DNA from: a virus | Length of the DNA stretch: 64,000 nt | Virus record (IMG/VR): IMGVR_UViG_3300020159_000786 | Location: 1-64,000 of that record | Strand: one strand, 5' to 3' | Shown here: piece after piece, positions 11,122-64,000 of the stretch | Numbering within the stretch: the first letter of the stretch is position 1 | Layout: each line of letters starts with the position of its first letter | Notes under the pieces: model-generated | What the model saw: the letters and a program-made list of their open reading frames with translations, nothing else | What the model was told of the DNA's origin: nothing | Databases searched by the model: none | Made by a program: the position numbers and the translations under genes

Positions 11122-11878
11122 GACCAAAACCTCCATTTACATTATCTAATATGCCAAGACTTCTTCCTTCTTCATGATATTGTGACCAACTTTTTTGAAA
11201 TTCTGGCATCTGATTTAAGGATGTGGTATAAGCATTTCTTACCTCTGGATCTGCAAGTGGATTATTTTCCCCTGTAAATCTATAATTGTCTATAGGACAA
11301 TAATCAAAACTAACAATTTCCACAAACTCTCCTGGCTTCCAATGTCTTTTAGGTCTCCAGTGTATTTGATTAACTGCACTAAAAAGCATTGCATCACCAT
11401 TTTTTAAATCATAATGTTTTCCATCAATAACTAATTGCCAATCGTCAACATTTCCACCAATTTGATAATTAAAGGTTACTAAATTTTCGTCTGCATCTAT
11501 ATGTGGAGGGAGTGAGGGAGCATACACTGAGTCTCCAAACTGCATATCATATCTTATATAATTATAATGACACAGTTTTAGTTCTTCTTTATAAACTGGT
11601 ATCGCATATGAATCCATAACTTCTTCAATTTGTTTAGGGCATTCAAACTCTATTAATTGTCTAGACATATGTTTGATCTTTTTAGGATAAAACCGATTCA
11701 TTTTAGAAATAATCTCAGAATCTATTTCTACTAAATCATCAACCTTTATATGTTTATTTATTTCAATAGCATTTCTTAATATAGATATTTCTTCTACACT
11801 AAATGGATTATTAATATATATTGGCAACTCTTTGTTATATTTTTCAAAACTAGTCAAATATTTGTGAACTTTTGTCAT
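11111..11878 (-). CDS. 2OG-Fe(II) oxygenase-like, tandem copy 1
   Basis: 255 residues with the double-stranded beta-helix iron site His126-x-Asp128 (PPHIDAD) and distal His173 (QIHWRPKRHW), the last followed by Arg residues that may bind 2-oxoglutarate. These enzymes hydroxylate or oxidise proteins, nucleic acids or small molecules using O2 and 2OG. It is the most downstream of four adjacent paralogues sharing the frame (HxD ... WxLVIDG ... AxLFSxxxQIHWRPKR). It overlaps the next copy by 1 nt. Substrate unknown. Confidence 0.75.
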   Translation of the reverse strand: MTKVHKYLTSFEKYNKELPIYINNPFSVEEISILRNAIEINKHIKVDDLVEIDSEIISKMNRFYPKKIKHMSRQLIEFECPKQIEEVMDSYAIPVYKEELKLCHYNYIRYDMQFGDSVYAPSLPPHIDADENLVTFNYQIGGNVDDWQLVIDGKHYDLKNGDAMLFSAVNQIHWRPKRHWKPGEFVEIVSFDYCPIDNYRFTGENNPLADPEVRNAYTTSLNQMPEFQKSWSQYHEEGRSLGILDNVNGGFGLGN

Positions 11879-12513
11879 TAGTATTGTCCATGAACTGGGT
11901 TTTTAGATATTCCAAAAGTATTTAACCAAATCGTTGATTTCTCACTAACTCTCTCTCTCATTTCTTTTTTATGATCCTCAGATAATGGTGAATCATTTTC
12001 TGCTGGAACAAAATGCATAAAAAGCATATCTAAGTATTCACCTTTTTCAAAATTACGTTTTGGTCTCCAATGAACTTGATGTGTTCCACTAAATGTTATG
12101 GCTTCGTTGTCATTTAATGTAAATGATTTTTCTGATACCCAATCATCTACGATTATGTCCCAAGAAACGTTGGAATCAAGTTGTAAATCTAAAGTAAATC
12201 TTTTGCTATCAAAAGCCTCATCTGTATGTGGATGCAACAATGGGTTATGCATCAGTGTCTTACAATCTGATATTGCCTTGTGATATCTAGAAAGGTTATA
12301 TTCCTTTAATATAAGTTTTTCTTTAGCGACTGCTTCGGCACACTCGGTTAACTTACCAATTAAACTATCAGGTAATTGAATATGCCAACTTGTGTAGGAA
12401 AGGTCTTCTTGAAAACTTTTATTAGTTGTTTGATCTAAAATTTTATATATTTCAAAAATTTCTTCATTACTTAAAACATTTTTAATAATAACATTTGGTA
12501 TGTCTTTTCTCAT
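11878..12513 (-). CDS. 2OG-Fe(II) oxygenase-like, tandem copy 2
   Basis: 211 residues. Iron ligands His96-x-Asp98 (LHPHTDEAF) and His148 (THQVHWRPKRNF). The segments FTLDLQLDSNVSWDIIVDDW and AITFSGTHQVHWRPKR align well with copies 1 and 3. Own start has GGAG and a TATAAT hexamer in the 34-nt gap upstream, so copies 1 and 2 may form a transcription unit separate from copies 3 and 4. Substrate unknown. Confidence 0.75.
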   Translation of the reverse strand: MRKDIPNVIIKNVLSNEEIFEIYKILDQTTNKSFQEDLSYTSWHIQLPDSLIGKLTECAEAVAKEKLILKEYNLSRYHKAISDCKTLMHNPLLHPHTDEAFDSKRFTLDLQLDSNVSWDIIVDDWVSEKSFTLNDNEAITFSGTHQVHWRPKRNFEKGEYLDMLFMHFVPAENDSPLSEDHKKEMRERVSEKSTIWLNTFGISKNPVHGQY

Positions 12514-14194: not shown

Positions 14195-15194
14195 TAAGTT
14201 TGTTCTTAATCATATCTTGAAGATCAAGATCCTCTCTTACTCTATCTATAAACGCTTCTCTACCCTGAATCTTTGTACCGTCGTCAAGTTGATACCAAGC
14301 ACCTGTTCTATTTATAATCCCAACATTTTCTGCAGTATCTACAAGATCACCTATAGCATCTACACCTAGGCCATCACCTCTAAAATAAAAATCATATTCT
14401 CCTGACTGAAATCCTGGAGATGTTTTAGAAAACTGTAATTCCCATCTAATTTTTCTACCAATTTTTTCTTCTATTAATTTGTCACCAATTTTTATCTTTC
14501 CTTTAAGTGCTTGATTATCTGATTCGGAAGAAAACAACTTAATCACACATGATGAATAAAACTTGGTAGCCTGTCCACCAGATGGTTGTTGGCTAGTATA
14601 CATTGCATTAATATTATTTCTTGATTGAGAAATAAGAACTAATAACGTTGGCTTTACTTTATTATTTGCATAATTTAACATTTTCCATGCATTACTAAAA
14701 TCACGAGATTCAGCACCAATTTGTTTTGTGTTTTCTAATGCTTTCATTTCATCAGTATCTTTTTCAAAATAAATTGCAGGAAGCATAGATGTTATTGAAT
14801 CAACAACAATTAAATCCACTCCAGCATTCATTAGTCCAACACCCACATCAACCATATCACTGATAGTTCTTGCTTGTGAATAAATAAGTTTTTCTGGATC
14901 AACACCAAGCGACTTGGCCCAATCTTCAGAATATGACATTTCTGAATCAATCCAAGCACAAACCTTTCCTTCTTTTTGTGCAAGAGCAATCATTTGTAAA
15001 CACATCGAAGATTTTGCAGAAGACTTGCTTCCCCAAATTAAAACCTGTCTACCATATGGAAGTCCTCCACCAAGTGCACGATTTAAACCAAAACTGGGTG
15101 TAGGTTGATATTCAAAATTTACCCCAACTCCGTTGCCAAGTCTTTTGCGTAACTTAGGATCTAACTGTGATAATACTTCTTCTACGCTAACCAT
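14187..15194 (-). CDS. RecA-like recombinase
   Basis: 335 residues. RecA-type ATPase core: FEYQPTPSFGLNRALGGGLPYGRQVLIWG, Walker A GSKSSAKSS (the canonical GPESSGKTT with Gly to Ala before Lys), IDSEMSYSEDWAKSLGVD, Walker B LIVVDSITSMLP, and LISQSRNNI (motif 3/L2 region). It binds single-stranded DNA and drives strand exchange or replication restart. It overlaps the polymerase gene by 8 nt, so it is likely co-translated with it. Shorter than most cellular RecA proteins and lacks an evident C-terminal acidic tail. Confidence 0.88.
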   Translation of the reverse strand: MVSVEEVLSQLDPKLRKRLGNGVGVNFEYQPTPSFGLNRALGGGLPYGRQVLIWGSKSSAKSSMCLQMIALAQKEGKVCAWIDSEMSYSEDWAKSLGVDPEKLIYSQARTISDMVDVGVGLMNAGVDLIVVDSITSMLPAIYFEKDTDEMKALENTKQIGAESRDFSNAWKMLNYANNKVKPTLLVLISQSRNNINAMYTSQQPSGGQATKFYSSCVIKLFSSESDNQALKGKIKIGDKLIEEKIGRKIRWELQFSKTSPGFQSGEYDFYFRGDGLGVDAIGDLVDTAENVGIINRTGAWYQLDDGTKIQGREAFIDRVREDLDLQDMIKNKLSV

Positions 15195-18100
15195 TGATGT
15201 CCTCCAAAATTACGGTTCCGTCTTTTGTTTTACCTAAAGTAAACTTGTATGCATGTCCTTCTTCTAACTTCATGTATGCCTGTGCAAATGATGTTGGAAA
15301 TACCATAACTGAATGTAAATCTCTTGATGTATCTGCCAAAGTTAGTGATGCCATTTTTTTACCTGCTTTTGTTGTTCTAGGTTTAAATGATACCACATAC
15401 ATCTCCTCTTCTGTAAATGGCAACTGTTTATAATTTAAAAATTTAACCAATGCATTAGATGATCCTTTAATTTGATCAACTGGAATTGCAGAAAGAATTC
15501 TGTTATCATTAACTAGTATTAAATAAGTTTGTCCAGTTTCAATGGTGGTTTGCTCTTCATCAAATATTCCAACACTACCAGTTTTATCTAAAACTTCAAC
15601 TCTAGACCAACCTTTACTTCTTTTAATATTTTTTACCATACCCATAATTACAAAAGATCCTTTTTCTTCATACTCTTCTATATCTTTTATAAAAGCATGA
15701 TAGTGTGCTGGAACTGTAATATTAAATTCTGGCAAATTTAAAATTTCATAAAGATTATGACGAATATCTTCATCATTTCTAGGATTATCTGGAAAAGTTG
15801 CAGCACCAATTAACTTTAATGCATTAAGTGCTCTACTGTTTACACCATTGCCTTTAGTAAAAGTAAATTCCTCTAATTCTTTATATGAATTAAACGGTCT
15901 GGCATCAATATATTTTTTAGCAATATTATCAGATATGTACTTGATAGCAGAAAGTCCAAACCTAATTCCTTTACCTTCAATCTTAAAATCTATATCAGAA
16001 TCATTAATGTGTGGTAACTTAACTGGAATGCCCATTCTTTTTGCTTCAATTAAATATTCAGTACGAGTATCTTTGTTGCTTTCATTTTTAAGCAAAGCAA
16101 ACATAAACTCAAGTGGATAGTAATACTTTAACCACGCTGTCCAATACGAGAGCGTAGAGTAAGCAACCGCATGAGACTTGTTGAACGAATATCCCGCATG
16201 TGCTTCAAAATCATGCCAAAGATCGCGAGCAACGTTAGGAGCAACATACTTAGAAGCACCCTCAACAAACTTTTCTTTAAAAACATCAAACTCCCTTGCA
16301 TCCTTCTTTTTACCAATAATCTTTCTAACCTTGTCTGCATCTGCCATTGTCATACCGCCAAGATGTACGCAAGCCTGCATAACTTGTTCTTGATATAAAA
16401 CACATCCGTATGTATCAGATGTAAACTCTTTCATTACTTGATGAACGTATGATACATTTTGTTTTCCATGTTTACGAGCCAAATAATCTTTACCAATAGT
16501 ATTCATGGCACCTGGTCTAACCAATGCGTTAGATGCAGCAAGTTCATTTAAATTCTTAACACCCATCTTAACTAACAAGTTTGTATATGGTGTTGCTTCA
16601 CATTGAAACACACCCTTTGTATATCCATCAGAAAGCATTTCATAAACTTTGGCATCTTCCATATTAATTTTTAATGGATCTATATCTACATAATGATTTT
16701 CTTTAATCATATCTATAGCATCTTTAACAACACTTAGCGTTTTTAATCCAAGTGCGTCTATTTTAATTAAACCAATTCTTTCTGCTTCTTCCATATCAAT
16801 ACCAACTACTGGAATTCTTTCGTCACTTCCAGGTGATGATCTTGTTTCTAATGGTGCGTATCTAAAGATTGGATTTTTGCTTGTTACAACACCAGCGGCA
16901 TGAATACCAGTACCACGAATTCTTCCACGCAACTGCTCTCCATAAACTTCCACCTCTGGATATTTTTCTCTAAACCAATCTGTTGATCTTGAACTGCAGT
17001 ACTCTTCCCAAGTATCTACTAACTTCAAAACTTTGTTAACATCTGACAAAGGAATGTTTAAAACTCTTGATACGTCTCTAACAACACCTTTGTCTTTAAA
17101 TTGTAAAAATGTAGCAATAGATGCAACGTGTCTATATTGTCTAACTAGATAATCTTTTACTTCATCACGACGTGAATCTTGAATATCTGTATCAATATCT
17201 GGAAAGTCATTACGTTCTGGATTAATAAATCTAAAGAAAAGCAAACCATGTTTAATTGGATCAATATCTGTAATATTTAAAGCATAACACAAAAGTGATC
17301 CAGCAGAAGATCCTCGGCCTGGGCCTACCATAATTCCTTCTTTTTTAGCCCAGTTAATCATACTTTGTACAACTAGAAAATATGGACCAAACTTCTTATC
17401 TTTAATTATCTCTAACTCTTCATTAAGTCTTTCTACATACACAAGGTCATTTAACAAACCTTTGTCTTTCAAACCTTGCATTGCAATTTCTTTAAGTTCT
17501 TTATCTGGATTTCTGTATTGAACTGGTAGCAAGTCCAAGCCTTCTTGTAGGTCATAATCTTCTACCTTATTAGCAATCTCTATAGTATTGGAGTATATGT
17601 CTTCTCTAAATATACCCTGCTTTTCCATGGCATACTTAATCTCTTCATAACTTAATAGATGTATGTCAAATTTATTAAATGTTATCTGTCTGTCTTTACC
17701 GTACAAATAGTCTAAACGTTCCATCATGTCTTTGTGTTTTTTAGATTTTTCGTATGTATGATCTTTTTCTATTTTGGCATGTGTGTTTAACAGTAGTTTA
17801 AATTCTTGAACTTCCCTTTGTTCTTTGCAACTATGATGACAGTCTGGAGTAACAACTACCTTTACACCAAATTCATCGGCAAGGGCAATAAGTTGTTTAT
17901 TTATCTCAGCAGCATTGTGTGGCATTACTTCAATATAATAATCATCTTTAAAAGTATCTTTAAACCATTCAATATATTTTTTTGCTACTGCAAATGCATT
18001 TTCTTCTAAAGCCTTAACAAGCACGCTACTTGGACAAGCAGATGTGACTATAATACCTTCTGAATATTGTTTTAATATTTCAAAATCAAATCTTGGTTTT

Positions 18101-18459
18101 TTAAAATATCCTTCAGTCCAAGCGATTTCATTTATTTTATTTAAGTTTTCTAAACCAACTTTGTTTTTAGCGAGAAGGACTATATGGTTGTAGACTAAAT
18201 CAAGTTGACCGTCTCTCTCAGACTTGTCTCTTGTATCAAATCTATCCTGACACATATAGCCTTCTACGCCAAGAATAGGCTTAACGTTCTTTGCTTTTGC
18301 ACCTCGATACAGTTCTCTATGCCCAGATAAGGTTCCGTGATCTGTGATTGCAATTGCTTGCATACCCAAATCAACTGCACGGTCTATATATTCTTCTGGA
18401 GTAGCAACACCATCAAATAATGAATAGTGTGTGTGAACGTGTAAGCCTACATAACTCAT
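15187..18459 (-). CDS. dnaE-like: C-family replicative DNA polymerase with PHP domain
   Basis: 1090 residues. The N-terminal PHP domain has VHTHYSLFDG, ITDHGTLSG, LGVEGYM and TPDCHHSC, so metal ligands look intact and proofreading is possible. The polymerase palm contains GPGRGSSAGSLLCYALNIT and PDIDTDIQDSRR with the catalytic Asp residues; further motifs include FLQFKDKGVVRDVSRVL, SNALVRPGAMNTIGK and YQEQVMQ...GYSFNKSHAVAYS. A C-terminal OB-like segment (FVIMGMVKNIKRSK) follows. The stop is 8 nt inside the recA-like gene; the start is 4 nt after the SSB stop. Phage polymerases of C family are typical of large actinophages. Confidence 0.95.
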   Translation of the reverse strand: MSYVGLHVHTHYSLFDGVATPEEYIDRAVDLGMQAIAITDHGTLSGHRELYRGAKAKNVKPILGVEGYMCQDRFDTRDKSERDGQLDLVYNHIVLLAKNKVGLENLNKINEIAWTEGYFKKPRFDFEILKQYSEGIIVTSACPSSVLVKALEENAFAVAKKYIEWFKDTFKDDYYIEVMPHNAAEINKQLIALADEFGVKVVVTPDCHHSCKEQREVQEFKLLLNTHAKIEKDHTYEKSKKHKDMMERLDYLYGKDRQITFNKFDIHLLSYEEIKYAMEKQGIFREDIYSNTIEIANKVEDYDLQEGLDLLPVQYRNPDKELKEIAMQGLKDKGLLNDLVYVERLNEELEIIKDKKFGPYFLVVQSMINWAKKEGIMVGPGRGSSAGSLLCYALNITDIDPIKHGLLFFRFINPERNDFPDIDTDIQDSRRDEVKDYLVRQYRHVASIATFLQFKDKGVVRDVSRVLNIPLSDVNKVLKLVDTWEEYCSSRSTDWFREKYPEVEVYGEQLRGRIRGTGIHAAGVVTSKNPIFRYAPLETRSSPGSDERIPVVGIDMEEAERIGLIKIDALGLKTLSVVKDAIDMIKENHYVDIDPLKINMEDAKVYEMLSDGYTKGVFQCEATPYTNLLVKMGVKNLNELAASNALVRPGAMNTIGKDYLARKHGKQNVSYVHQVMKEFTSDTYGCVLYQEQVMQACVHLGGMTMADADKVRKIIGKKKDAREFDVFKEKFVEGASKYVAPNVARDLWHDFEAHAGYSFNKSHAVAYSTLSYWTAWLKYYYPLEFMFALLKNESNKDTRTEYLIEAKRMGIPVKLPHINDSDIDFKIEGKGIRFGLSAIKYISDNIAKKYIDARPFNSYKELEEFTFTKGNGVNSRALNALKLIGAATFPDNPRNDEDIRHNLYEILNLPEFNITVPAHYHAFIKDIEEYEEKGSFVIMGMVKNIKRSKGWSRVEVLDKTGSVGIFDEEQTTIETGQTYLILVNDNRILSAIPVDQIKGSSNALVKFLNYKQLPFTEEEMYVVSFKPRTTKAGKKMASLTLADTSRDLHSVMVFPTSFAQAYMKLEEGHAYKFTLGKTKDGTVILEDING

Positions 18460-50270: not shown

Positions 50271-50279
50271 ATTTTATCA
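50271..50279 (-). promoter_or_regulatory. Extended -10-like TGATAAAAT
   Basis: Minus-strand TGATAAAAT upstream of the 1200-residue gene; AGGAG lies between it and ATG 50256. Confidence 0.3.
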
Positions 50280-50807
50280 TAAAATACGTGTAAACCAGCG
50301 TGGTAACGTAAACCTAACACCCTTTGATATTTGCTTAACTCCGTGAATAAAGTTTGGATTATCTGGAAAACATAAAAGGTCTCCAGGATTTGGCTTAAAG
50401 GACATGTTGTATTCTGGAAAATATATGTCTCCACCCTCATATTCATTATTTAAATAAACTAGTGTTGCTATGTCTTTTGGTCTAGATGAATCAAAGTGTT
50501 CGTGCATTCCTGCACCTTCAACAAATTTAGCAATATGTGTTTTTTCATCAATAAACGGTTCAAAACTATATTCATAGTTATTTATAACAAAATCATATAC
50601 TTTATGTGCAGTATTTTGTATAACATTAAGAATGTTTTCATCTAAACCACCTATTTCGTGGTATGTATGAACTGTAAATTCTTGTTCATTGTTTCCATAA
50701 TTAGAAAACAATTCAGAGTGTTTTTTGGCATATTGAGTTATTAATTCTGCTTCACTGGGATCCATAAATCCCTCAACATACTTAATTTGAGACTTAAAGT
50801 CTTCCAT
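50277..50807 (-). CDS. 2OG-Fe(II) oxygenase (prolyl-hydroxylase-like)
   Basis: 176 residues with a full iron/2OG site: His104-x-Asp106 (HEHFDSS), distal His155 (FIHGVKQI) and Arg165 ten residues later (GVRFTLPRW), matching the P4H-type 2OG-Fe(II) oxygenase family. It is adjacent to and upstream of the LamG-like gene, 1 nt after the RNR stop. Substrate unknown: a protein side chain, a nucleotide or a small molecule are all possible. Not closely similar to the tandem copies at 11-13.7 kb. Confidence 0.85.
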   Translation of the reverse strand: MEDFKSQIKYVEGFMDPSEAELITQYAKKHSELFSNYGNNEQEFTVHTYHEIGGLDENILNVIQNTAHKVYDFVINNYEYSFEPFIDEKTHIAKFVEGAGMHEHFDSSRPKDIATLVYLNNEYEGGDIYFPEYNMSFKPNPGDLLCFPDNPNFIHGVKQISKGVRFTLPRWFTRIL

Positions 50808-50808
50808 A

Positions 50809-52839
50809 TTAACCTATCTTTATTTCACAAACATCAGTGGTGCAGTATGACTCACCTTGTGCTTCTAGATTTTTTACTCCATCATAGATAGCATCCCAGT
50901 TAATCTTACCAATCTTTCCTACATAACTATTATACTCTTCTTCAGTAATTTCTGTATATGGTTGTTGTGGATATACCGTGTTTCCCATAGGCAAAAATGA
51001 TACTGCCTTCAATTGTCCCTCATACATGTGTAATGCTGGAGCAACATATTTAGACTCTGTTTCTTTGTCAAAAGACAACGTTACTGATACGCCATTGTCT
51101 GACCAATATTTTTGAGCAGTTGCTGCAAGAGCAATTTTTTCAAAAAGTGAAACATCTTTTTCAGCCCTTTGGTGCTCAGAAGCAATTGGAAAATAAACAA
51201 CCTTTGTATTTGCAGAAACAACGTCATCTTCTATCTTATATCCAGCAGCCTTAAATAAATGAACCATAGGATCATTTTCACCAAATCTAATTGCTCTTAT
51301 AAAGAATCTTCCACCTGGACCCCAATGAACTCCTGGAGTTGCTCCAGAAAGAATACTTACGCTACCAGAAGGTTTCACTGTTGTAACTCTGATTGATTCG
51401 CGAACACAAAGCCATTCTGAATATTGATGATCATATTTTTTAATATTTAAATATCCTTCATCCATCCATTCACGAACTGTTGGCAAACCGTGTTTATCTG
51501 AAAAAGAAGCAATTCCAGTTAAAGAAGTTCCGATTCTTCTGTTTCTTTGCATGATACCATTTGTTTGTTGCCAATGAGTTGGAACTAGTGTAACTGTTTT
51601 TCCATATAAGTATGCAAACTTTAATGTTCTTAAAAAGTCTTCTTTATCTTCATGTCTATTTAAATGAACTTCAACCAGTGTACACAATTCATAAGACTCT
51701 AATGGTTGTTCTGCACATGGATTAAATCCCATAACTCTATAATCTTTGTTATCTGCTGGATCTTTTAATCTGCCGTAGTTTCTGGCAACATCTAACCATA
51801 TAAAACCTGGCTCTCCGTTATTTACAATTAAATCTACATAGTCTTCGTACTTGGTTCCAACAGTTGCAGAAATAGAGTTATTAGACATCCAAGCCCAACC
51901 TGGATTATCTGAATCAAATGAATTTCTTTCTGGAAAAACCTCTGGATTTTTTAAATTAATAAAGTCTTTGTCTTCGGCAGAACCTAATGCTAGTGTTGCT
52001 GATCTACGAACATTTCCTGCAACGACACAAGTTCCAATTAAGTTAATAACATCTACTATTGCTCTAGAATCAAGTTTCTCTCCTGTTCTATTGCCTATAA
52101 CGTTATCAATTTGATTATGTAATTTTATTAATGGATCTGGTCCTGATGCTGTACCGCCAAAACCTTTAATGGGGGCACCAAATGGTCTTATTAAATCATA
52201 ATTAAATTTTTGTTTTGATTGGCCTTGTCTGAGATATGAGTTTAACAATAATCTAACAGACTCTACCCATCCCTCTCTAGTATCTGGAATTTCATAAACC
52301 GATTCAACTTCTGATGGTGTGTATATAGAAAATTCTTTGTCTTGTCCAACGGTATCAAAACCAACTCCAATACCTAGCATAAGGGCGTCCATAACCCACG
52401 CAAACAGGGCTCCTGGATCGTTTCTATCTAGATCCTTGGTAGATACCATGGCACAGTTTTGAAGGGCTGCAGAGTTCCTTTTTTCCATTGTCATAGGGGT
52501 TCCAAATGCCCACATGCCACGACCTGGTGGTGTCCATTTAAGATTAAACATACGGTCAAATGCTTCTTGAGCAGACTTTTGAGCCTTATAGTCATTCCAT
52601 GGCAATCTGTTTTCTTTTGCATGATTTTTTTGCACTGAATACATACCTTCAATTACACGCTTACAAACTTCGTACCATCTTTCTTTAGTACCATCTTCTT
52701 TAACACGAGAATATGTTCTTATAAAAGTAATCTCACCTAGTGAGTTGTTTCCAGCATCGTTAAATCCAAATGGACTATCCATGGTTGTATACTTTGCTAC
52801 AAAATCCTCTGGAAGTTTAAAACTAAAAAAGTCTGACAT
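50809..52839 (-). CDS. nrdJ: Adenosylcobalamin-dependent (class II) ribonucleotide reductase
   Basis: 676 residues. Class II monomeric pattern: TPPGRGMWAFGTP, ALQNCAMVSTKDL, FAWVMDALMLGIGVGFDTVG, GNVRRSATLALG, FNPCAEQPLESYELCTLVEV (the NPCAExxLxxxExC active-site segment) and TTVKPSGSVSILSGATPGVHWGPGGRFF, with a C-terminal Cys pair (CTTDVC) for electron transfer. It reduces ribonucleotides to deoxyribonucleotides, requiring host B12. No separate radical subunit is present, consistent with class II. SD TAGGAG and TGTTATACT lie upstream. Confidence 0.88.
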   Translation of the reverse strand: MSDFFSFKLPEDFVAKYTTMDSPFGFNDAGNNSLGEITFIRTYSRVKEDGTKERWYEVCKRVIEGMYSVQKNHAKENRLPWNDYKAQKSAQEAFDRMFNLKWTPPGRGMWAFGTPMTMEKRNSAALQNCAMVSTKDLDRNDPGALFAWVMDALMLGIGVGFDTVGQDKEFSIYTPSEVESVYEIPDTREGWVESVRLLLNSYLRQGQSKQKFNYDLIRPFGAPIKGFGGTASGPDPLIKLHNQIDNVIGNRTGEKLDSRAIVDVINLIGTCVVAGNVRRSATLALGSAEDKDFINLKNPEVFPERNSFDSDNPGWAWMSNNSISATVGTKYEDYVDLIVNNGEPGFIWLDVARNYGRLKDPADNKDYRVMGFNPCAEQPLESYELCTLVEVHLNRHEDKEDFLRTLKFAYLYGKTVTLVPTHWQQTNGIMQRNRRIGTSLTGIASFSDKHGLPTVREWMDEGYLNIKKYDHQYSEWLCVRESIRVTTVKPSGSVSILSGATPGVHWGPGGRFFIRAIRFGENDPMVHLFKAAGYKIEDDVVSANTKVVYFPIASEHQRAEKDVSLFEKIALAATAQKYWSDNGVSVTLSFDKETESKYVAPALHMYEGQLKAVSFLPMGNTVYPQQPYTEITEEEYNSYVGKIGKINWDAIYDGVKNLEAQGESYCTTDVCEIKIG

Positions 52840-52929: not shown

Positions 52930-53058
52930 TTAGTGAAATGACATTGCTGTATGTGGTTTTGAACTACAACGTTCACATAATGTATATGTATTTTTAGTAT
53001 AAGGACATGTAATTGAATTTATTTTATGTCCAAAAATAAAACAAAGTATTTTACTCAA
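52930..53058 (-). CDS. 42-aa CxxC zinc-knuckle protein with TTG start
   Basis: A short ORF beginning at TTG 53058, overlapping the upstream oxygenase-like stop (TTGA), 42 residues: MSKILCFIFGHKI, TCPYTK, LCERC, MSFH. One Cys near residue 6, one at 18, and CxxC at 28-31, with nearby His residues, look like a small zinc site. Small proteins of the form CFxFGHKxxxxxCPxTK...CxRC...HMSF occur in phages. It fills the gap between the oxygenase-like pair and RNR. Function unknown; the overlap argues it is real. Confidence 0.6.
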   Translation of the reverse strand: MSKILCFIFGHKINSITCPYTKNTYTLCERCSSKPHTAMSFH

Positions 53059-53684
53059 GGTAATGGAACCCAATGCTGTAATTCATCTCCATCCATATAC
53101 ATCATTGGAGATATGTCATAAGCAATTGTTATTCTTGGTTTATCAAATAACCAAGGACCTATTCCATGAGGATGACCAGTTTCAGACAAAATAGCCCTAT
53201 TGTTTTTATTAATGTTTTCAATTACAGGCTTGTCTTGCCCACCTATTTTGTAATATGTAACCGATGGCTCAGCATCTACACAGTAGTATCCGTGAAAATT
53301 AGGAGCACCAGTTCCTCCTAAGTGATCATGATAATGACTTGATTCATCTACTGGTGGTTCAGCAATACCGTCGGTATTAAACCATCCTTGTACCATATAG
53401 GCTTGTTTTTTATAGTCAATACCATAATAAACACATGCTTCCACAGTCATATCTCTTAATGCTGAAAATAATTTGTGAATTTGTGGATTATAGCATTGAA
53501 AAATATTAAACTTAGTTCCTAGGTTGTGCGTACCACCAATATTACTTGCAAACTCTTTAGAAACTTTTGGATAAATTCCGTTAAATAAATCTTTTTCTAC
53601 ATTTAATAAATATTGAGAAAGAGTATTTAGTTCATTGTTTAAATATTTTTCAAAAAACTTATGTGGTTGACTATTATTTTTCAC
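53055..53684 (-). CDS. Oxygenase-like protein (HDH/HFHG type), paralogue B
   Basis: 209 residues from GTG 53684, which overlaps the stop of the upstream paralogue (GTGA). A run of His/Asp residues (SHYHDHLGGTGAPNFHGYYC) is followed by TYYKIGGQ and GHPHGIGPW...RITIAYDI, consistent with a cupin/double-stranded beta-helix metal site like the 2OG-FeII_Oxy_5 group. It is a sister of the next gene and lies in the RNR cluster. Substrate unknown; the exact family is uncertain. Confidence 0.55.
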   Translation of the reverse strand: MKNNSQPHKFFEKYLNNELNTLSQYLLNVEKDLFNGIYPKVSKEFASNIGGTHNLGTKFNIFQCYNPQIHKLFSALRDMTVEACVYYGIDYKKQAYMVQGWFNTDGIAEPPVDESSHYHDHLGGTGAPNFHGYYCVDAEPSVTYYKIGGQDKPVIENINKNNRAILSETGHPHGIGPWLFDKPRITIAYDISPMMYMDGDELQHWVPLP

Positions 53685-54343
53685 AACAGAGGAATCCAAT
53701 GTTGTTCATTTTCCATTCCAAGTTGTTGTAAATCTCTTAGTGGAACAACATCGTAAGCAACAGTTATTCTTGGACCATCCCAACTCCAATCTCCTTGTGC
53801 ATGTGGATGTCCCATTTCTGAAAATATAGCACGATTATCTATATTTTTATTTATAATATCTTTACCAAAAACTTTATAATATGTTGTTGATGGTTCTGCT
53901 TTTACGCAATAATATCCATGAAAATGTGGTGCTCCTGAATGACCATGATCATGCCAATTAAGTTTTCCTTTTTTATTATAGTTAATATTAAACCATCCCT
54001 GAACCATAAATTTTTCTTTATCAAAATCTAACTCATAGTATTCGCAGGCCTCTTTAGCCATTTCGCTTATTGATTTATACAAATTAAACAATCCAACACT
54101 ATGAAATTGAAATACGTTATATTCTCTCCATTTAACTGTAGAAACACTTCCAGACTCGGTCCAAAAATCATCTTTTGTTACTGGAGTTATACCCTCTAGT
54201 TCTACTTGTTCAATTTTTTTATATCTTTCTGACAACTCTTGAGATAAAATATCAAGATCATTATTTAAAAATCTTTCAAAAAATTTATGTGGCTTTAATG
54301 AACTCTTAATCCCAGGAATTTCTGGTGGTAAACTATTTTGCAT
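53681..54343 (-). CDS. Oxygenase-like protein (HDH/HFHG type), paralogue A
   Basis: 220 residues. It shares with paralogue B the pattern WHDHGHSGAPHFHGYYCV-x-AEPS-x-TYYK and GHPHAQGDWSWDGPRITVAYDV, plus the N-terminal KPHKFFERFLNNDL / QPHKFFEKYLNNEL. Conserved His-rich positions suggest a non-haem iron site (2OG-FeII_Oxy_5-like), but the HxD triad is not as clear as in the other oxygenases. Two tandem -10 elements lie upstream, so it starts the RNR operon. Confidence 0.55.
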   Translation of the reverse strand: MQNSLPPEIPGIKSSLKPHKFFERFLNNDLDILSQELSERYKKIEQVELEGITPVTKDDFWTESGSVSTVKWREYNVFQFHSVGLFNLYKSISEMAKEACEYYELDFDKEKFMVQGWFNINYNKKGKLNWHDHGHSGAPHFHGYYCVKAEPSTTYYKVFGKDIINKNIDNRAIFSEMGHPHAQGDWSWDGPRITVAYDVVPLRDLQQLGMENEQHWIPLL

Positions 54344-54398: not shown

Positions 54399-55673
54399 TT
54401 AAAGATATTCTGGATAATATTCTGGATGTGTTGTTATACCAGATGCGTTTATAAATCCTATATCTTTAAATTTATAACTATATACTGTTCTATCTTCTTC
54501 TATAATCTCAAAACTTTCTAATAAATATCTAAATTCTAGCCCATTAATATTTGTAACTAAATAATCTCCAACTATGAGTTTTGTTGATGTACAAAATAAA
54601 TATTCTTTATTTCTATATATTAAAATTTCTTCTGAATCTGATATTCTTTTATTTATATCTTTATTAATTATGACAGTTCTTTTAACTGGTGTTATAATAA
54701 TATCTTCTATCCTAGATTCTATTATTTTAAAATTATTTAAATCTTTAACTTTCCATTCTTTTAATTTTTCTACAGTATCCACAATTGGTTTATTATCAAA
54801 TGTTTGCAACAACAAACTATCTTCAATCCTAATATCTTGTGCTTTTTTCCAACCAGAAACTGTAAGAATTAAAGTATCTTGGTCTATGCATCTGATTGTT
54901 GGAGAAAAACCAAATACTCTAAATGGAGAAAAACCAAATACTTTAAATGGTGTAAATGAAAATGGAGAAAAACCAAATACTTTAAAAGGTGTAAAACTAA
55001 ATACTGAAAAAGGTACAAAACTAAATACTTCAAAAGGAGAGAATCCAAAAACTCCAAATGGAGCAAAAGAAAATGTTGTGGTTATAGTATTAGAATAATC
55101 AGAAAAAACAGAGTTTCCATTTGCATTTGTAGCATACACCCTATATGCTTGAGAGGTTCCTGCTTCTTGTCCTAATGATGCACTTGTTGAAGTTCCAGAA
55201 TTACCCGCTTTACTATCATTTGATTCCCAATAATAATTCGTAATTACTGATCCACCATTTGCAGGTGCTGACCAACTAATTTGGTCTTCATTTGCGTTTG
55301 GAGAAGATGCAGTTGGCGTGCCAGGTTTGTCTGGAACTGTTGTTGAAGTAATAGAATTAGATGCTGTTGATGCTGCTGATGTTCCATAGGTATTAGTTGC
55401 AGTTACTGTAAAGGTATATGTGGTATCTGATTGTAGACCTGTAACTGTAATTGGAGATGATGCTCCAGTTGCTGTAAAACTACCTGGAGTTGATGTAACT
55501 GTAAAAGAATCTGCTGCATAGGTAGGATCTGCTGTAAATGTTACTGTGGCTGCACCATTGTTATATGCCCGCCCTGTTCCAACGTTTGTTGCTGTACCAA
55601 TTGTTGGTGCTTTTGGTGCTAAAAAGTCATTAGCCTGTTGTGACTTTCTTCCTGCCTTTTTTCCTGCTGCCAT
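54399..55673 (-). CDS. Fn3 - FSFxPFxV repeat - Hint-like domain protein
   Basis: 424 residues. A short basic N-terminus, then two fibronectin type III-like domains (about 22-110: SFTVTSTPGSFTATG, TTYTFTVTATNTYGTS; about 112-200), then an octapeptide repeat F[SG]FxPFxV at residues 201-258, then Cys262 opening CIDQDTLILTVSGWKKAQDI. The last ~160 residues have Hint/intein order: block A Cys and GD/ED turn, a T-V-I-I-N strand, LIVGDYLV, and a final VYSYKFKDIGFINASGITTHPEYY. The block B His and the closing Asn are not clearly kept. A fibre-associated, possibly self-processing surface protein. A paralogue is at 63240-64000. Confidence 0.7.
   Translation of the reverse strand: MAAGKKAGRKSQQANDFLAPKAPTIGTATNVGTGRAYNNGAATVTFTADPTYAADSFTVTSTPGSFTATGASSPITVTGLQSDTTYTFTVTATNTYGTSAASTASNSITSTTVPDKPGTPTASSPNANEDQISWSAPANGGSVITNYYWESNDSKAGNSGTSTSASLGQEAGTSQAYRVYATNANGNSVFSDYSNTITTTFSFAPFGVFGFSPFEVFSFVPFSVFSFTPFKVFGFSPFSFTPFKVFGFSPFRVFGFSPTIRCIDQDTLILTVSGWKKAQDIRIEDSLLLQTFDNKPIVDTVEKLKEWKVKDLNNFKIIESRIEDIIITPVKRTVIINKDINKRISDSEEILIYRNKEYLFCTSTKLIVGDYLVTNINGLEFRYLLESFEIIEEDRTVYSYKFKDIGFINASGITTHPEYYPEYL
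54894..55073 (-). repeat. 24-bp coding repeats encoding F[SG]FxPFxV
   Basis: Imperfect tandem 24-bp units in frame within the Fn3-Hint gene, about seven copies, one irregular by a 5-codon insertion. Same unit as at 63723-63942. Confidence 0.75.
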
Positions 55674-55704: not shown

Positions 55705-58344
55705 TTAGTTAGTTAGATCTCCATATGCAACCCAAGTATTTTCTGCTCTTTTAAATATAGTTGCCGAAGACCATTGTGTTCTTAATTTTAATCCTGGAGT
55801 AGCATTTATTGTTACTCCAACTTCTCCATCAATTGTTACCTGTCCTGTACCAGTTTGAAGAATATCAAGAGAAGTTCCAATTGGAAAGGCTACTGCTGAA
55901 TTAAGAGGAATAGTCAATGTAGTTGGACTAGAACTACCCATTTCTATCAAATCATCTCTTTCAGTTAATGCTGACAAAGTATAACTTGCTGTTTTTTGAA
56001 TAATTGGTGTTAATGATGGGACACCTTGTAATGATTGGGTTCCGTCAGAAAATGTGATGCTTGTTGCGTTTGCTGCACCAAGAGTAGGGGTAGTAAATGA
56101 AGGACTACTTGTTCTAGCAATAGATGATGGTATTACTGTTTCGCTTATTGTTCCAGTTGTAATATTATTTGCATTAATATCGGTTATATTATTTCCACTA
56201 CCTTCAAAAGAAGATGCCACAACTGTACCTAATGTAAAAGATGCATCTGCTGTATTTATTGTTCCAGTAGGTTCAGGGTCATACTCTTTAAAAAATTTAA
56301 ACTTGTCATCACTAACATCAAAAAACATTCCAAGATGTGTATATCCAGTGCCAGTATTACCAGTATTTCTATTGCCAATAAAAGCGATGTCTAAATTAAC
56401 TGGAGATGCTGTACCAGACCAAATATCATCAAGAATATGTCCGTGATCTTCTATAAAAGAAACTTTAATACCGTCACTAAGTGCGTACTCTACTCCTGGC
56501 TCAATTAAAATATCTGAACCATTGTTTGTTACAAAGTTATCTACTGACCATCTAAATGAATCTGGATTGCTTCCACTACCGTTTATTGTAATCTTAACTT
56601 TAAAAGTTTTAGTTGTTGTTCCATCATAATGACCAACAAGTGTTGCATCATCTACACCAGTTCCAGAGAAAGTAGTTCCTAATGCTCCAATGGTATCTCC
56701 ACTATTCAAATAAATAAAATTATTTGAAACAGAAAGATTAGTTAATTGTAATTCAGATTGAGAACCAATTAATGTAAAATCTCCACCAACTATTAAGTCT
56801 CCATCAATATATGCACCATCTATAACTCTTATTCTTTCAAAAGCATGATCAACAATATGAACATACACACTCCCATCAATATCATCTGATGTTAAACAAA
56901 TTCCAAGGTCTGTTGGGAAATTCGGGTATTCTGGAGCATCTGCAACTATTTGTCCAGGAGATTCAAAACCTAAATGAAAGCGTCCACCACTAGTGAGTGC
57001 AGAAGTATCTATTCCTTTTAAGTATCCACGAACAACAACATATCCAAATGAGTTTGAATTAATACTTTCACCAGTTAATCCAATAATATTAGTTTTAGTT
57101 CCATCTGTTGCGTCTCCTATATCAATAGTTGGGCAGTGTCCATAAACTGGATCTCCAGAAATATGTACTCCATTTATATATACTGGTGTACCTTTAGGAA
57201 TTGTTGTTAATGTTGAATTTCTACACCTTACCCACTCTCTTTGTCCTAAACTCATTTCAAAATTTGTTCCACTGCCTTGACCAATAAATGTTTTTTCGTC
57301 ATCACTATAATAAAAATTACCTTCTTGCCATGTTGGGTAATTTGCACTTGCTGATGGAGTCAAATGTATGTAATCATTTACTTCAAAACTGTCTACAGTT
57401 ACTGTATTGCTAAAAGTTGGGCCATTTAAGTTTGCTTTTAAATCTAAAGCACTTTGTTGTGCAGTTGATACTGGCTTATTCAAATCTGAGGTATTATCTA
57501 CATCACCTAAACCAACATCTGATTTAGTTATTCCCAAAGGAGATTGTATAGTTTTATTTGTAAGTGTTTGTGTGCCGTCAAGTGTAACTAAGTTTGCTGT
57601 ATTTACTATTCCGTGTACATTTTCTGTTAAAAGATTGTGAGCATTTACCTTATCTAAAGAATCTTGTGCTGCTGTGTTTATTGCACCCAAAACTTGTGTA
57701 TTTCTGGCTTCAGCCTCTGCATAAATTAATTGATAAGCATAACAAGCAGATGATGTTTGAGATTCCTCAATAGACAAAGAAAGTGATGCACTTACGTCTA
57801 ATAAATCTTGTGAAACACTGCTAATTAATGCATTTGTAGCAAAAAATTCATCACTTACTAAATTTGAATAAAGTGCTATTGAACCATCAGTGTATGATGC
57901 ACTTGTTGCTATTCCATCTATAATGTTATTATTAATCTGTTCAATGTCTATTGTGTTTGCTAATGCTGTTACACTTTCGTCTGTATAAAAATTTGAACTA
58001 CTTATTGCATCATACACACTAAGAGTAAGCGTTTCATTTACATTTTCAAGTTGTTGATAAACATAATTATATGAAGCAGAAACTTGAGACATTCTTGCTA
58101 TGTCAGAAGATATTTGCTCATCTGGAACAACAACTAGTCCATTTAATGTTGCAACACCATTAGCAGCACCCTTTTCTGAATATGGGATTCCACCAGATGA
58201 AACTAGCGTATCATCTACATATTCTTTAGTGGCAGCATGATTATCTTGTGTAGGTGTACCTACTACTACGCTGCCACCAAAGGATCCGCCATTGGTAACT
58301 AGAAGACCATTTTTGACTTTAAAGTCTTTATTATTAGTCGTCAA
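55705..58344 (-). CDS. Tail fibre protein, T4-like shaft motifs
   Basis: 879 residues starting at TTG 58344 with AAGGAGG. KDFKVKNGLLVTNGG, DNHAATKEYVDD and LDGTQTLTNKTIQSPLGITKSDVGLGDVDNTSDLNKPVSTAQQSALDLKANL are typical of long tail fibre shafts of marine and enterobacterial phages. The middle is beta-rich (ISGDPVYGHCPTIDIGDATDGT), and the end has FPIGTSLDILQTGTGQVTIDGE, a trimeric fibre-tip type domain. It is a receptor-binding fibre or its distal half. Confidence 0.7.
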   Translation of the reverse strand: MTTNNKDFKVKNGLLVTNGGSFGGSVVVGTPTQDNHAATKEYVDDTLVSSGGIPYSEKGAANGVATLNGLVVVPDEQISSDIARMSQVSASYNYVYQQLENVNETLTLSVYDAISSSNFYTDESVTALANTIDIEQINNNIIDGIATSASYTDGSIALYSNLVSDEFFATNALISSVSQDLLDVSASLSLSIEESQTSSACYAYQLIYAEAEARNTQVLGAINTAAQDSLDKVNAHNLLTENVHGIVNTANLVTLDGTQTLTNKTIQSPLGITKSDVGLGDVDNTSDLNKPVSTAQQSALDLKANLNGPTFSNTVTVDSFEVNDYIHLTPSASANYPTWQEGNFYYSDDEKTFIGQGSGTNFEMSLGQREWVRCRNSTLTTIPKGTPVYINGVHISGDPVYGHCPTIDIGDATDGTKTNIIGLTGESINSNSFGYVVVRGYLKGIDTSALTSGGRFHLGFESPGQIVADAPEYPNFPTDLGICLTSDDIDGSVYVHIVDHAFERIRVIDGAYIDGDLIVGGDFTLIGSQSELQLTNLSVSNNFIYLNSGDTIGALGTTFSGTGVDDATLVGHYDGTTTKTFKVKITINGSGSNPDSFRWSVDNFVTNNGSDILIEPGVEYALSDGIKVSFIEDHGHILDDIWSGTASPVNLDIAFIGNRNTGNTGTGYTHLGMFFDVSDDKFKFFKEYDPEPTGTINTADASFTLGTVVASSFEGSGNNITDINANNITTGTISETVIPSSIARTSSPSFTTPTLGAANATSITFSDGTQSLQGVPSLTPIIQKTASYTLSALTERDDLIEMGSSSPTTLTIPLNSAVAFPIGTSLDILQTGTGQVTIDGEVGVTINATPGLKLRTQWSSATIFKRAENTWVAYGDLTN

Positions 58345-62667: not shown

Positions 62668-63243
62668 ATGAAAAAAGATAAAAAATTTTTAATAGGATTG
62701 CTCGCAAGTCTTGGATTGTTTTCAGTATTCTTGAATATTTCTAATGCTCAAGGTGTTGAAACTAACCTGAAAAACGATAAATATGCAACATTTACCGCTG
62801 AGGCGGTTTTTTTGCTTTCTAGGCCAGATCACCTAGACAAACCATCTAGAGATAACGTAAGGACCCTTGCTGAGTATCAGGACAAAGGACAATTTACAGA
62901 TATTGAATTAAAAACTTTGCTATCTGCTTGTGGATTTGAAGATAGGCGTTTAGTTGAAGCCTGGGCTATTGTTAAAAAAGAATCAATGGGCAATGCTCTA
63001 GCCTTTAACGGTAATAAGAAAACTGGAGACAGTTCTTATGGTTTATTTCAAATCAACATGATTGGTGCTTTAAATGATGATAGAAAAGAAAAATATAATT
63101 TAGATTACACTAGTCAACTATTAAATCCATCTATTAATTGTCAGGTTGCTTATATTATGAGTGATGGTGGTAATGATTGGGGACCTTGGAAAGGTATTAC
63201 ATCAAAAACTAGAGAGTTTATGTATCAGTTTCCAAAAGATTAA
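62668..63243 (+). CDS. Secreted lytic transglycosylase-like endolysin
   Basis: 191 residues with a signal peptide (MKKDKKFLIGLLASLGLFSVFLNISNAQG). Then LLSACGFEDRRLVEAWAIVKKESMGNALAFN: the Glu105 in KKES is the expected catalytic acid of lysozyme-like SLT enzymes, followed by DSSYGLFQINM, a hallmark SLT motif, and LLNPSINCQVAYIMSDGGNDWGPW. It would cut cell-wall glycan after export, independent of holin or with it. SD AGGAG, own strong promoter. Converges on the Hint-domain gene with a 4-nt stop overlap. Confidence 0.8.
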   Translation: MKKDKKFLIGLLASLGLFSVFLNISNAQGVETNLKNDKYATFTAEAVFLLSRPDHLDKPSRDNVRTLAEYQDKGQFTDIELKTLLSACGFEDRRLVEAWAIVKKESMGNALAFNGNKKTGDSSYGLFQINMIGALNDDRKEKYNLDYTSQLLNPSINCQVAYIMSDGGNDWGPWKGITSKTREFMYQFPKD

Positions 63244-64000
63244 TCTATTGGGTAGGCATTGTATACATATAATGAATCTGCTACTATTAATCCAAATGGC
63301 TCTCTTATAAAATCATAAACTTCTCTATCTTCTTTTACAATTTGAATAGAGTCAATATTGCAATAAGGAACAGTTGTTTCATCTATGTCTTTAACTATCT
63401 TATCTCCTGATTGTAAATCAGAAGAAACTATAAATTTTAATTTTCCATCTCTTATTGTTAATATATCTTCTTGAGTTGAAAATCTTTTAAATTTATCACT
63501 ATTAACTATTACTGTTTCTGAAACTTTTGTTATTTCAATATTTTTAACTTCAGATTCTAAAGTTTGATATTCTTTGTTTAATTCAGATGACCAATTTTTT
63601 AAACCATTGTGATCTGTTATTGGTAAATCTTCAAATATTTTAGTTATTAAAATATCACCAATCTTAATATCTTTTGCCAACACATAACCATTTTTTGTTA
63701 AAACTGGAGTATCTTGGTCTATACATACTGGGACTGCTGGAGAAAAACCAAATACTTTAAATGGAGAAAATCCAAATGGAGAAAAACCAAATACTTTAAA
63801 AGGTGTAAAACTAAATACTGAAAAAGGTGTAAAACTAAATACTGAAAAAGGTGTAAAACTAAATACTGAAAAAGGTGCAAAACTAAATACTGCAAATGGA
63901 GAAAATCCAAAAACACCGAATGGAGCAAAAGAAAATGTCCTTATTGTTAAATCTACTGGTGTTTCATAATTAGCAATTGTTGCTGCTGACGGATTCTGAT
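63240..64000 (-). CDS. Repeat - Hint-like domain protein, 5'-truncated
   Basis: Partial gene whose N-terminus runs off the right edge. The visible 5' part has TFSFAPFGV, then many F[SG]FxPFxV octapeptides, then Cys at the start of CIDQDTPVLTKNGYVLAKDIKIGDILITK. The Hint-like region ends REVYDFIREPFGLIVADSLYVYNAYPID. It is a clear paralogue of the 54399-55673 protein. In the block B position it has SETVIVNSDKFKRFSTQEDIL, with Glu where His would be expected, and the closing pair is Tyr-Asn rather than His-Asn, so self-splicing is doubtful; cleavage or a purely structural role remains possible. Confidence 0.7.
   Translation of the reverse strand, partial: QNPSAATIANYETPVDLTIRTFSFAPFGVFGFSPFAVFSFAPFSVFSFTPFSVFSFTPFSVFSFTPFKVFGFSPFGFSPFKVFGFSPAVPVCIDQDTPVLTKNGYVLAKDIKIGDILITKIFEDLPITDHNGLKNWSSELNKEYQTLESEVKNIEITKVSETVIVNSDKFKRFSTQEDILTIRDGKLKFIVSSDLQSGDKIVKDIDETTVPYCNIDSIQIVKEDREVYDFIREPFGLIVADSLYVYNAYPID
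63723..63942 (-). repeat. 24-bp coding repeats encoding F[SG]FxPFxV, second locus
   Basis: About eight in-frame units, several nearly identical (AAAGGTGTAAAACTAAATAC-type 24-mers on the plus strand), within the truncated Hint gene. They match the repeats at 54894-55073 and would recombine readily. Confidence 0.75.

What the first reader, a model, noticed from the sequence alone, without database searches (positions are those of the whole stretch)
54399..55673. Fibronectin-like domains, octapeptide stalk and C-terminal Hint/intein-like domain in one virion-type protein
Seen: two Fn3-like domains, about seven F[SG]FxPFxV octapeptides, then Cys262 in CIDQDTLILT and a ~160-residue C-terminal region ending in GFINASGITTHP. 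Known: Hint domains begin with a nucleophilic Cys followed by D-T-x-[VIL] and end with a G-[IV]-x-[VT]-HN stretch. Inference: a fibre-associated protein carrying a C-terminal autoprocessing or crosslinking module, not an intein interrupting an extein. A second paralogue sits at 63240-64000. This is the strongest candidate for an undescribed system here: self-cleaving or covalently attached repeat proteins.
Basis: partly seen in the sequence, partly recalled or inferred. Interest (0 to 1): 0.85.

Follow-up and report, generated by a model that had tools for sequence, protein, structure and literature searches.

The report
Phage stalk protein with Hint cap
A phage tail-associated protein ends in a domain with the fold of self-cutting inteins; the same end-cap sits on many different repetitive stalks in uncultured phages and always keeps the one amino acid needed for the chemistry, which suggests that these phages trim or attach their stalks with it.

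Summary
ORF 54399-55673 (-) is a 424-aa protein: tandem Fn3 domains, six full F[SG]FxPFxV octapeptides, then a C-terminal domain starting at Cys262. AlphaFold2 plus structure search shows that this domain is a genuine Hint fold, closest to bacterial intein-like (BIL) domains; Cys262 falls on intein residue 1. The paralogue is PASTA + octapeptides + Hint and runs past the window end (63240-64181 of the record).

Among 126 distinct caps the first residue is always Cys (79) or Ser (47), although the window's cap is only 32-38% identical to its orthologues' caps and the other intein catalytic positions vary. The cap sits on at least eight kinds of low-complexity stalk and is swapped between paralogues. 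In 100 of 112 cases the gene directly follows a tail-protein gene with one conserved C-terminal domain.

Best reading: a terminal, non-splicing Hint that makes a (thio)ester at the end of the stalk and cleaves itself off. Cleavage, cross-linking and a purely structural role are not separated by sequence, and the window copy lacks block-B His and the terminal Asn. It is a new variant of a known kind, not a new fold or an intein.

The parts
54399..55673 (-). Whole gene: 424-aa Fn3 - octapeptide stalk - Hint protein
   Evidence: ORF; domains
55074..55613 (-). Tandem Fn3 domains (residues 21-200)
   Evidence: Pfam fn3 E=1.2e-7; AF2 pLDDT mostly 79-94 and best PDB matches mostly tandem Fn3
54891..55073 (-). 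Octapeptide stalk (residues 201-261): six full F[SG]FxPFxV units and two truncated ones
   Evidence: low confidence as a monomer, pLDDT about 31
54402..54890 (-). C-terminal Hint domain (residues 262-424)
   Evidence: AF2 pLDDT 93, pTM 0.88; PDB matches are BIL, intein and Hedgehog domains
54888..54890 (-). Codon of Cys262, the predicted nucleophile (intein position 1)
   Evidence: Structural alignments run model residue 5 = Cys262 to intein residue 1; Cys or Ser in 126 of 126 caps
54630..54641 (-). Block B: Ser345-x-x-Glu348 in place of Thr-x-x-His
   Evidence: Profile-PDB alignment; Ser and Glu invariant in clade A
54423..54428 (-). Block G: His416-Pro417 in place of His-Asn
   Evidence: Model residue 160 = Pro417 is the last residue aligned, to the intein's terminal residue 440; Asn, Asp, His, Ser or Gly in relatives
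55708..56013 (-). Conserved C-terminal domain of the upstream tail protein (gene 55705-58344), the fixed gene partner
   Evidence: Same domain ends the gene directly before 100 of 112 distinct Hint genes; PHROG minor tail protein 8780
63240..64000 (-). Paralogue, window part: PASTA (end only) - octapeptide stalk - Hint; complete gene is 63240-64181 in the record
63243..63725 (-). Hint domain of the paralogue; Cys codon 63723-63725; ends LYVYNAYPID
53055..54343 (-). Two small genes, 2OG-Fe(II)-oxygenase-like by weak match, directly downstream; association with the Hint gene recurs in relatives
   Evidence: phrog_81 E=0.015 for 53055-53699 only; neighbour table

Best explanation
The protein is a tail-associated stalk protein. 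Its N-terminal Fn3 (or, in the paralogue, PASTA) part probably docks on or near the tail protein encoded just upstream, and its F/P-rich stalk projects outward. Its C-terminal domain is a terminal, non-splicing Hint domain of bacterial intein-like or Hedgehog type. The first residue of the cap (Cys262; Ser in a sister clade) attacks the preceding peptide bond (N-S or N-O acyl shift). The stalk then hangs on the cap by a (thio)ester that is resolved by water, so the cap is released as a C-terminal maturation module. Shown here: domain make-up, Hint fold, nucleophile position, universal Cys/Ser, cap modularity, gene pairing. Inferred: the acyl shift, hydrolysis, release of the cap, and its timing during assembly.
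For: Fold; profile search hits a solved BIL domain first, E=3.5e-8. Nucleophile: Cys or Ser in 126 of 126 caps and 78 of 78 representatives under 80% identity, collected by three different search patterns. The octapeptide scan selected on the stalk only (48 of 48) and the clade C scan on a C-terminal motif only, so neither could favour a Cys or Ser. On a tree the nucleophile changes once (Cys/Ser), block B 3 times, block G 5 times, and the residue before it 7 times. Proline is never the residue before the nucleophile in 78 representatives, though stalk composition predicts about 17; a Pro there would hinder the shift (established intein chemistry). Only 0-36 residues (median 5) follow block G, so there is no C-extein to splice to. 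Stalk proteins without any Hint exist behind the same partner gene (26 of 29) and end at or just after the stalk (FNFAPWG, VFGFR, SPYSRG), much as a cleaved product would. BIL domains are known to give mainly cleaved products (PMC7664689).
Against: No cleavage has been observed. The window copy has Glu in place of the block-B His that helps the acyl shift in most inteins, and Pro in place of the terminal Asn. The cap differs far more between orthologues than the rest of the protein (32-38% against 71-83% identity), as expected of an exposed binding module rather than one that is thrown away. A few inteins lacking block-B His are active (own knowledge), so this is not decisive.
Confidence: 0.5

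Rival explanations
1. The Hint fold is kept as a structural or receptor-binding tip: a hypervariable, exchangeable end domain of a tail-tip adhesin, without bond cleavage.
For: Cap identity 32-38% against 71-79% for the N-terminal part and 80-83% for the stalk. Caps are swapped between the Fn3 and PASTA paralogues: 67-72% identity within one group of contigs against 34-42% to orthologous caps. The gene order 'fibre gene, then small variable gene' resembles T2-type gp37-gp38, where gp38 sits at the tip of gp37 and binds the receptor (PMC12892980). Block-B His and terminal Asn are missing in the window copy.
Against: A purely structural cap would not need Cys or Ser at position 1 in 126 of 126 caps across such divergence, nor a block-B position restricted to His, Glu or Gln.
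Confidence: 0.27
2. Acyl transfer instead of hydrolysis: the stalk end is handed from Cys/Ser to an amine or hydroxyl on another virion protein (most likely the gene partner or a neighbouring stalk), cross-linking the fibre.
For: Same chemistry as the best explanation up to the (thio)ester. A fixed gene partner exists (100 of 112). BIL domains can ligate without a side-chain nucleophile (title of the Aranko 2013 reference, seen).
Against: The partner is also fixed for Hint-less stalk proteins (26 of 29), so pairing does not require the Hint. No acceptor residue was identified.
Confidence: 0.15
3. Degenerate intein or selfish insertion left at the end of a tail gene.
For: Hint fold; inteins are common in phage genes.
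Against: Always terminal, never inside a conserved extein, no homing endonuclease insert, hundreds of relatives with a conserved nucleophile, two copies per phage on different proteins.
Confidence: 0.03

Closest known systems
Bacterial intein-like (BIL) domains (2lwy Clostridium thermocellum; 6y75 Tetrahymena BUBL BIL2)
   Same: Hint fold (Z 16.4 and 16.8), Cys at position 1, no +1 nucleophile, sits in variable proteins; A-type keeps His-Asn, as part of this family does (17 of 78 representatives have Cys/His/His-Asn).
   Different: Here the cap is always terminal, on low-complexity phage stalks. The window copy lacks block-B His and the terminal Asn, and a whole sister clade uses Ser/His/Asp.
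Hedgehog autoprocessing (Hog) domain, 1at0
   Same: C-terminal Hint that uses only the first acyl shift; Z 14.7.
   Different: No sterol-recognition region after the Hint; viral, not secreted animal protein; the acceptor is unknown.
Class 1 inteins (RadA, MtuRecA, gp41-1)
   Same: Fold, block A, position of the nucleophile.
   Different: No extein on the C side, no splicing signature, no homing endonuclease.
Erwinia phage pEa_SNUABM_5 gp108 and Phage NCTB BN7874_132/136
   Same: Cultured or sequenced phage tail proteins with a C-terminal Hint, remote similarity to this cap (E 2e-3 to 9e-3).
   Different: Collagen-like or other stalks; canonical HEHP/HN motifs in the Erwinia protein; no octapeptides.
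T2/S16-type gp38 tail-fibre tip adhesin
   Same: Works like it in layout only: a variable protein encoded directly after a fibre gene, low-complexity scaffold, variable distal part (PMC12892980).
   Different: gp38 has polyglycine helices and receptor loops, no Hint; here the scaffold is Phe/Pro-rich and no docking was tested.

Membership tests
HINT superfamily | Hedgehog/intein fold | tested here: met
   AF2 pLDDT 93; VIA Z 16.8, 139 residues, 2.2 A to 6y75; all 50 listed entries are inteins, BILs or Hedgehog
HINT superfamily | Cys or Ser nucleophile at the first residue | tested here: met
   Cys262 in the window copy; Cys/Ser in 126 of 126 caps
HINT superfamily | Block-B Thr-x-x-His | tested here: not met
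   Ser-x-x-Glu in both window copies; His in 42 of 78 representatives
Intein | Interrupts an extein and has residues to splice on both sides | tested here: not met
   Median 5 residues after block G, at most 36
A-type BIL domain | Conserved C-terminal His-Asn (PMC7765530) | tested here: not met
   Window copy ends His-Pro; paralogue Tyr-Asn. Met in other clades
A-type BIL domain | N- and/or C-terminal autocleavage | not testable with these tools
   Needs protein
B-type BIL domain | B-type sequence motifs | not tested
   No B-type alignment was at hand
Hedgehog (Hog) domain | Sterol-recognition region C-terminal to the Hint | tested here: not met
   Nothing but a short tail follows
gp38-type tip adhesin | Polyglycine-rich scaffold | tested here: not met
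   Stalk end is 27% Phe, 22% Pro
gp38-type tip adhesin | Protein docks on the end of the fibre encoded upstream | not testable with these tools
   Only gene order shown: 100 of 112

The most novel reading that the evidence does not exclude
The cap is a covalent attachment device: the (thio)ester at the stalk end is transferred to an amine or hydroxyl of another virion protein or of the host surface, so that these phages build or anchor fibres by acyl transfer, with Cys and Ser versions of the same chemistry.
Probability: 0.1. Interest if true: 0.9.

Novelty: new variant of a known kind. Interest (0 to 1): 0.6.

Why it matters
The natural role of terminal Hint/BIL domains is, to my knowledge, poorly understood. 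Here is a large viral family in which the cap has a fixed place (end of a stalk), a fixed gene partner, interchangeable stalks, and a natural series of catalytic variants (Cys/His/Asn, Cys/Glu/Asn, Ser/His/Asp). That makes it testable what such domains do, and whether phages use self-cleaving or acyl-transfer chemistry to finish their fibres. If active, the caps would also be a new source of cleavage and ligation tags.

Tried and rejected
Canonical intein: rejected, the cap is terminal. Chance repeat: rejected by shuffles. Non-catalytic degenerate Hint: looked for relatives that lost the nucleophile; none among 126. Cultured phages with the octapeptide protein: none by tblastn. Bacterial or archaeal genomes: no relative in the GTDB contigs scanned, so the host stays unknown. 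The mixed alignment A2 could not be used for a collection scan. Pfam and NCBIfam give only sub-threshold Hint/intein matches for single members, so family libraries alone would miss it. Structure of the stalk: unresolved as a monomer, pLDDT about 31; an oligomer could not be modelled. Literature: ten searches found papers on inteins in phage terminase, RNR and similar genes, none on terminal Hint caps of phage stalks; subscription journals are not covered.

Full report
What is there. The ORF at 54399-55673 (-) encodes 424 residues. Residues 21-200 are two Fn3 domains (Pfam E=1.2e-7; tandem Fn3 pairs dominate the PDB matches of the full-length model). Residues 201-261 hold six full F[SG]FxPFxV octapeptides and two truncated units; none appeared in 2000 shuffles. 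Residue 262 is the Cys of CIDQDTLILT. The window is bases 1-64000 of a 70,983-base virus record. The paralogue at 63240 continues to 64181 and starts with a PASTA domain. The record carries portal, head protease, major capsid, DNA polymerase and helicase genes, so it is a tailed phage.

The C-terminal domain is a Hint domain. Single sequences give only sub-threshold matches to intein/Hint models. A profile of 30 relatives finds a solved bacterial intein-like domain first (2lwy, E=3.5e-8), then RadA, Cdc21 and gp41-1 inteins. AlphaFold2 on that alignment gives pLDDT 93 and pTM 0.88. VIA-align gives Z 16.8 to Tetrahymena BIL2 (139 residues, 2.2 A), 16.4 to 2lwy, about 15-16 to mini-inteins and 14.7 to Hedgehog. 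Several alignments run from model residue 5 (Cys262) = intein residue 1 to model residue 160 (Pro417) = the terminal intein residue.

A family, not a single case. Of the octapeptide ORFs, 48 distinct ones had more than 100 residues after the stalk; all 48 align as Hint. Scans with cap alignments added 79, 80 (best of 255) and 39 loci. The same cap occurs on many stalks: F[SG]FxPFxV, FF[AGS]PPx, FFPPFFPF, PGFNEPAF, NPPPYDNYGNYGNY, GFYHGFTHYAGF, VTPAVTPEVTP, TPVTPV, PTSPTAP, VVVNDP. About 34 distinct octapeptide ORFs have no Hint; a few of these are cut by a contig end.

The nucleophile is never lost. Among 126 distinct caps position 1 is Cys 79 times and Ser 47 times; among 78 representatives under 80% identity it is Cys 53, Ser 25. 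Some scans used a pattern containing the Cys, but the octapeptide scan did not look at the cap at all and the clade C scan used only a C-terminal motif, so the result is not an artefact of the search. The other catalytic positions move in sets: Cys/His/Asn 17, Cys/Glu/Asn 26, Cys/Gln/Asn 5, Ser/His/Asp 24, and six odd ones including the window's Cys/Glu/Pro. Parsimony on a tree gives one Cys/Ser change, three block-B changes and five block-G changes (the tree included these columns). Proline never precedes the nucleophile in 78 representatives although about 17 are expected from stalk composition; sequences are related, so this is suggestive only.

Gene context. In 100 of 112 distinct Hint genes with enough upstream sequence, the gene directly before (same strand, within 150 bases) ends in one conserved domain of about 100 residues. 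In the window this is the C-terminus of 55705-58344 for the Fn3 copy and of the gene at record 64189-64839 for the PASTA copy; PHROGs link it to minor tail and virion proteins. The same holds for 26 of 29 Hint-less octapeptide genes, so the pairing belongs to the stalk protein and the Hint is one of several possible ends. 2OG-oxygenase-like genes lie within 1.5 kb downstream for 67 of 122.

Variability. Window against eight orthologues: N-terminal part 71-79% identical, stalk 80-83%, Hint 32-38%. In one contig group the Hints of the Fn3 and PASTA paralogues are 67-72% identical while orthologous Hints are 34-42%. So the cap is a swapped, fast-changing module.

How it most likely works. Established intein/Hint chemistry (BIL domains mainly cleave, PMC7664689; Hedgehog uses only the first acyl shift) plus the universal Cys/Ser make N-terminal (thio)ester formation the best-supported activity, with release of the cap by hydrolysis as the simplest outcome (confidence 0.5). 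The high variability and the lost His and Asn keep a structural or receptor-binding tip alive (0.27), and transfer to another protein (0.15). None of these has been tested in protein.

Novelty. The fold and chemistry are known. Hint-capped fibres exist in records (Erwinia phage pEa_SNUABM_5, Phage NCTB, uncultured Caudovirales entries). I found no paper that describes the terminal caps, their Cys/Ser/Asp variants, their exchange between stalks or the gene pairing. I therefore call it a new variant of a known kind.

Noticed in passing
50277-50807, 53055-54343: One clear 2OG-Fe(II) oxygenase (Pfam PF13640, E=1.3e-9) and two small genes 2OG-oxygenase-like by weak match, around a B12-dependent RNR (50809-52839); the same set recurs next to Hint genes in relatives. 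They might modify the Pro/Phe-rich stalk.
   Followed up: partly
L007, L030, L032, L120; L009, L025, L040, L079, L102; L006, L011, L013: Octapeptide stalk proteins without a Hint end in Cys-rich tails (e.g. CCGAGSGAACATCSCRAC), in FNFAPWG, or in VFGFR; some carry a WSEWSAW stretch that looks like thrombospondin type 1.
   Followed up: partly
L125:744-1205 (Phage NCTB BN7874_135): A small protein that looks like a Hint domain nearly without an N-terminal extein, next to a tail gene with its own C-terminal Hint.
   Followed up: no
62668-63243: Lone + strand gene between the two Hint units, lysozyme or lytic-transglycosylase-like by eye, 93% or more conserved in close relatives.
   Followed up: no
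15187-18459; 11878-12513: Phage-encoded DNA polymerase III alpha subunit and a ferrochelatase-like gene (phrog_2954).
   Followed up: no
L226 and L259: 957-residue proteins ending in a Hint with no separate partner gene directly before; the partner may be fused.
   Followed up: no
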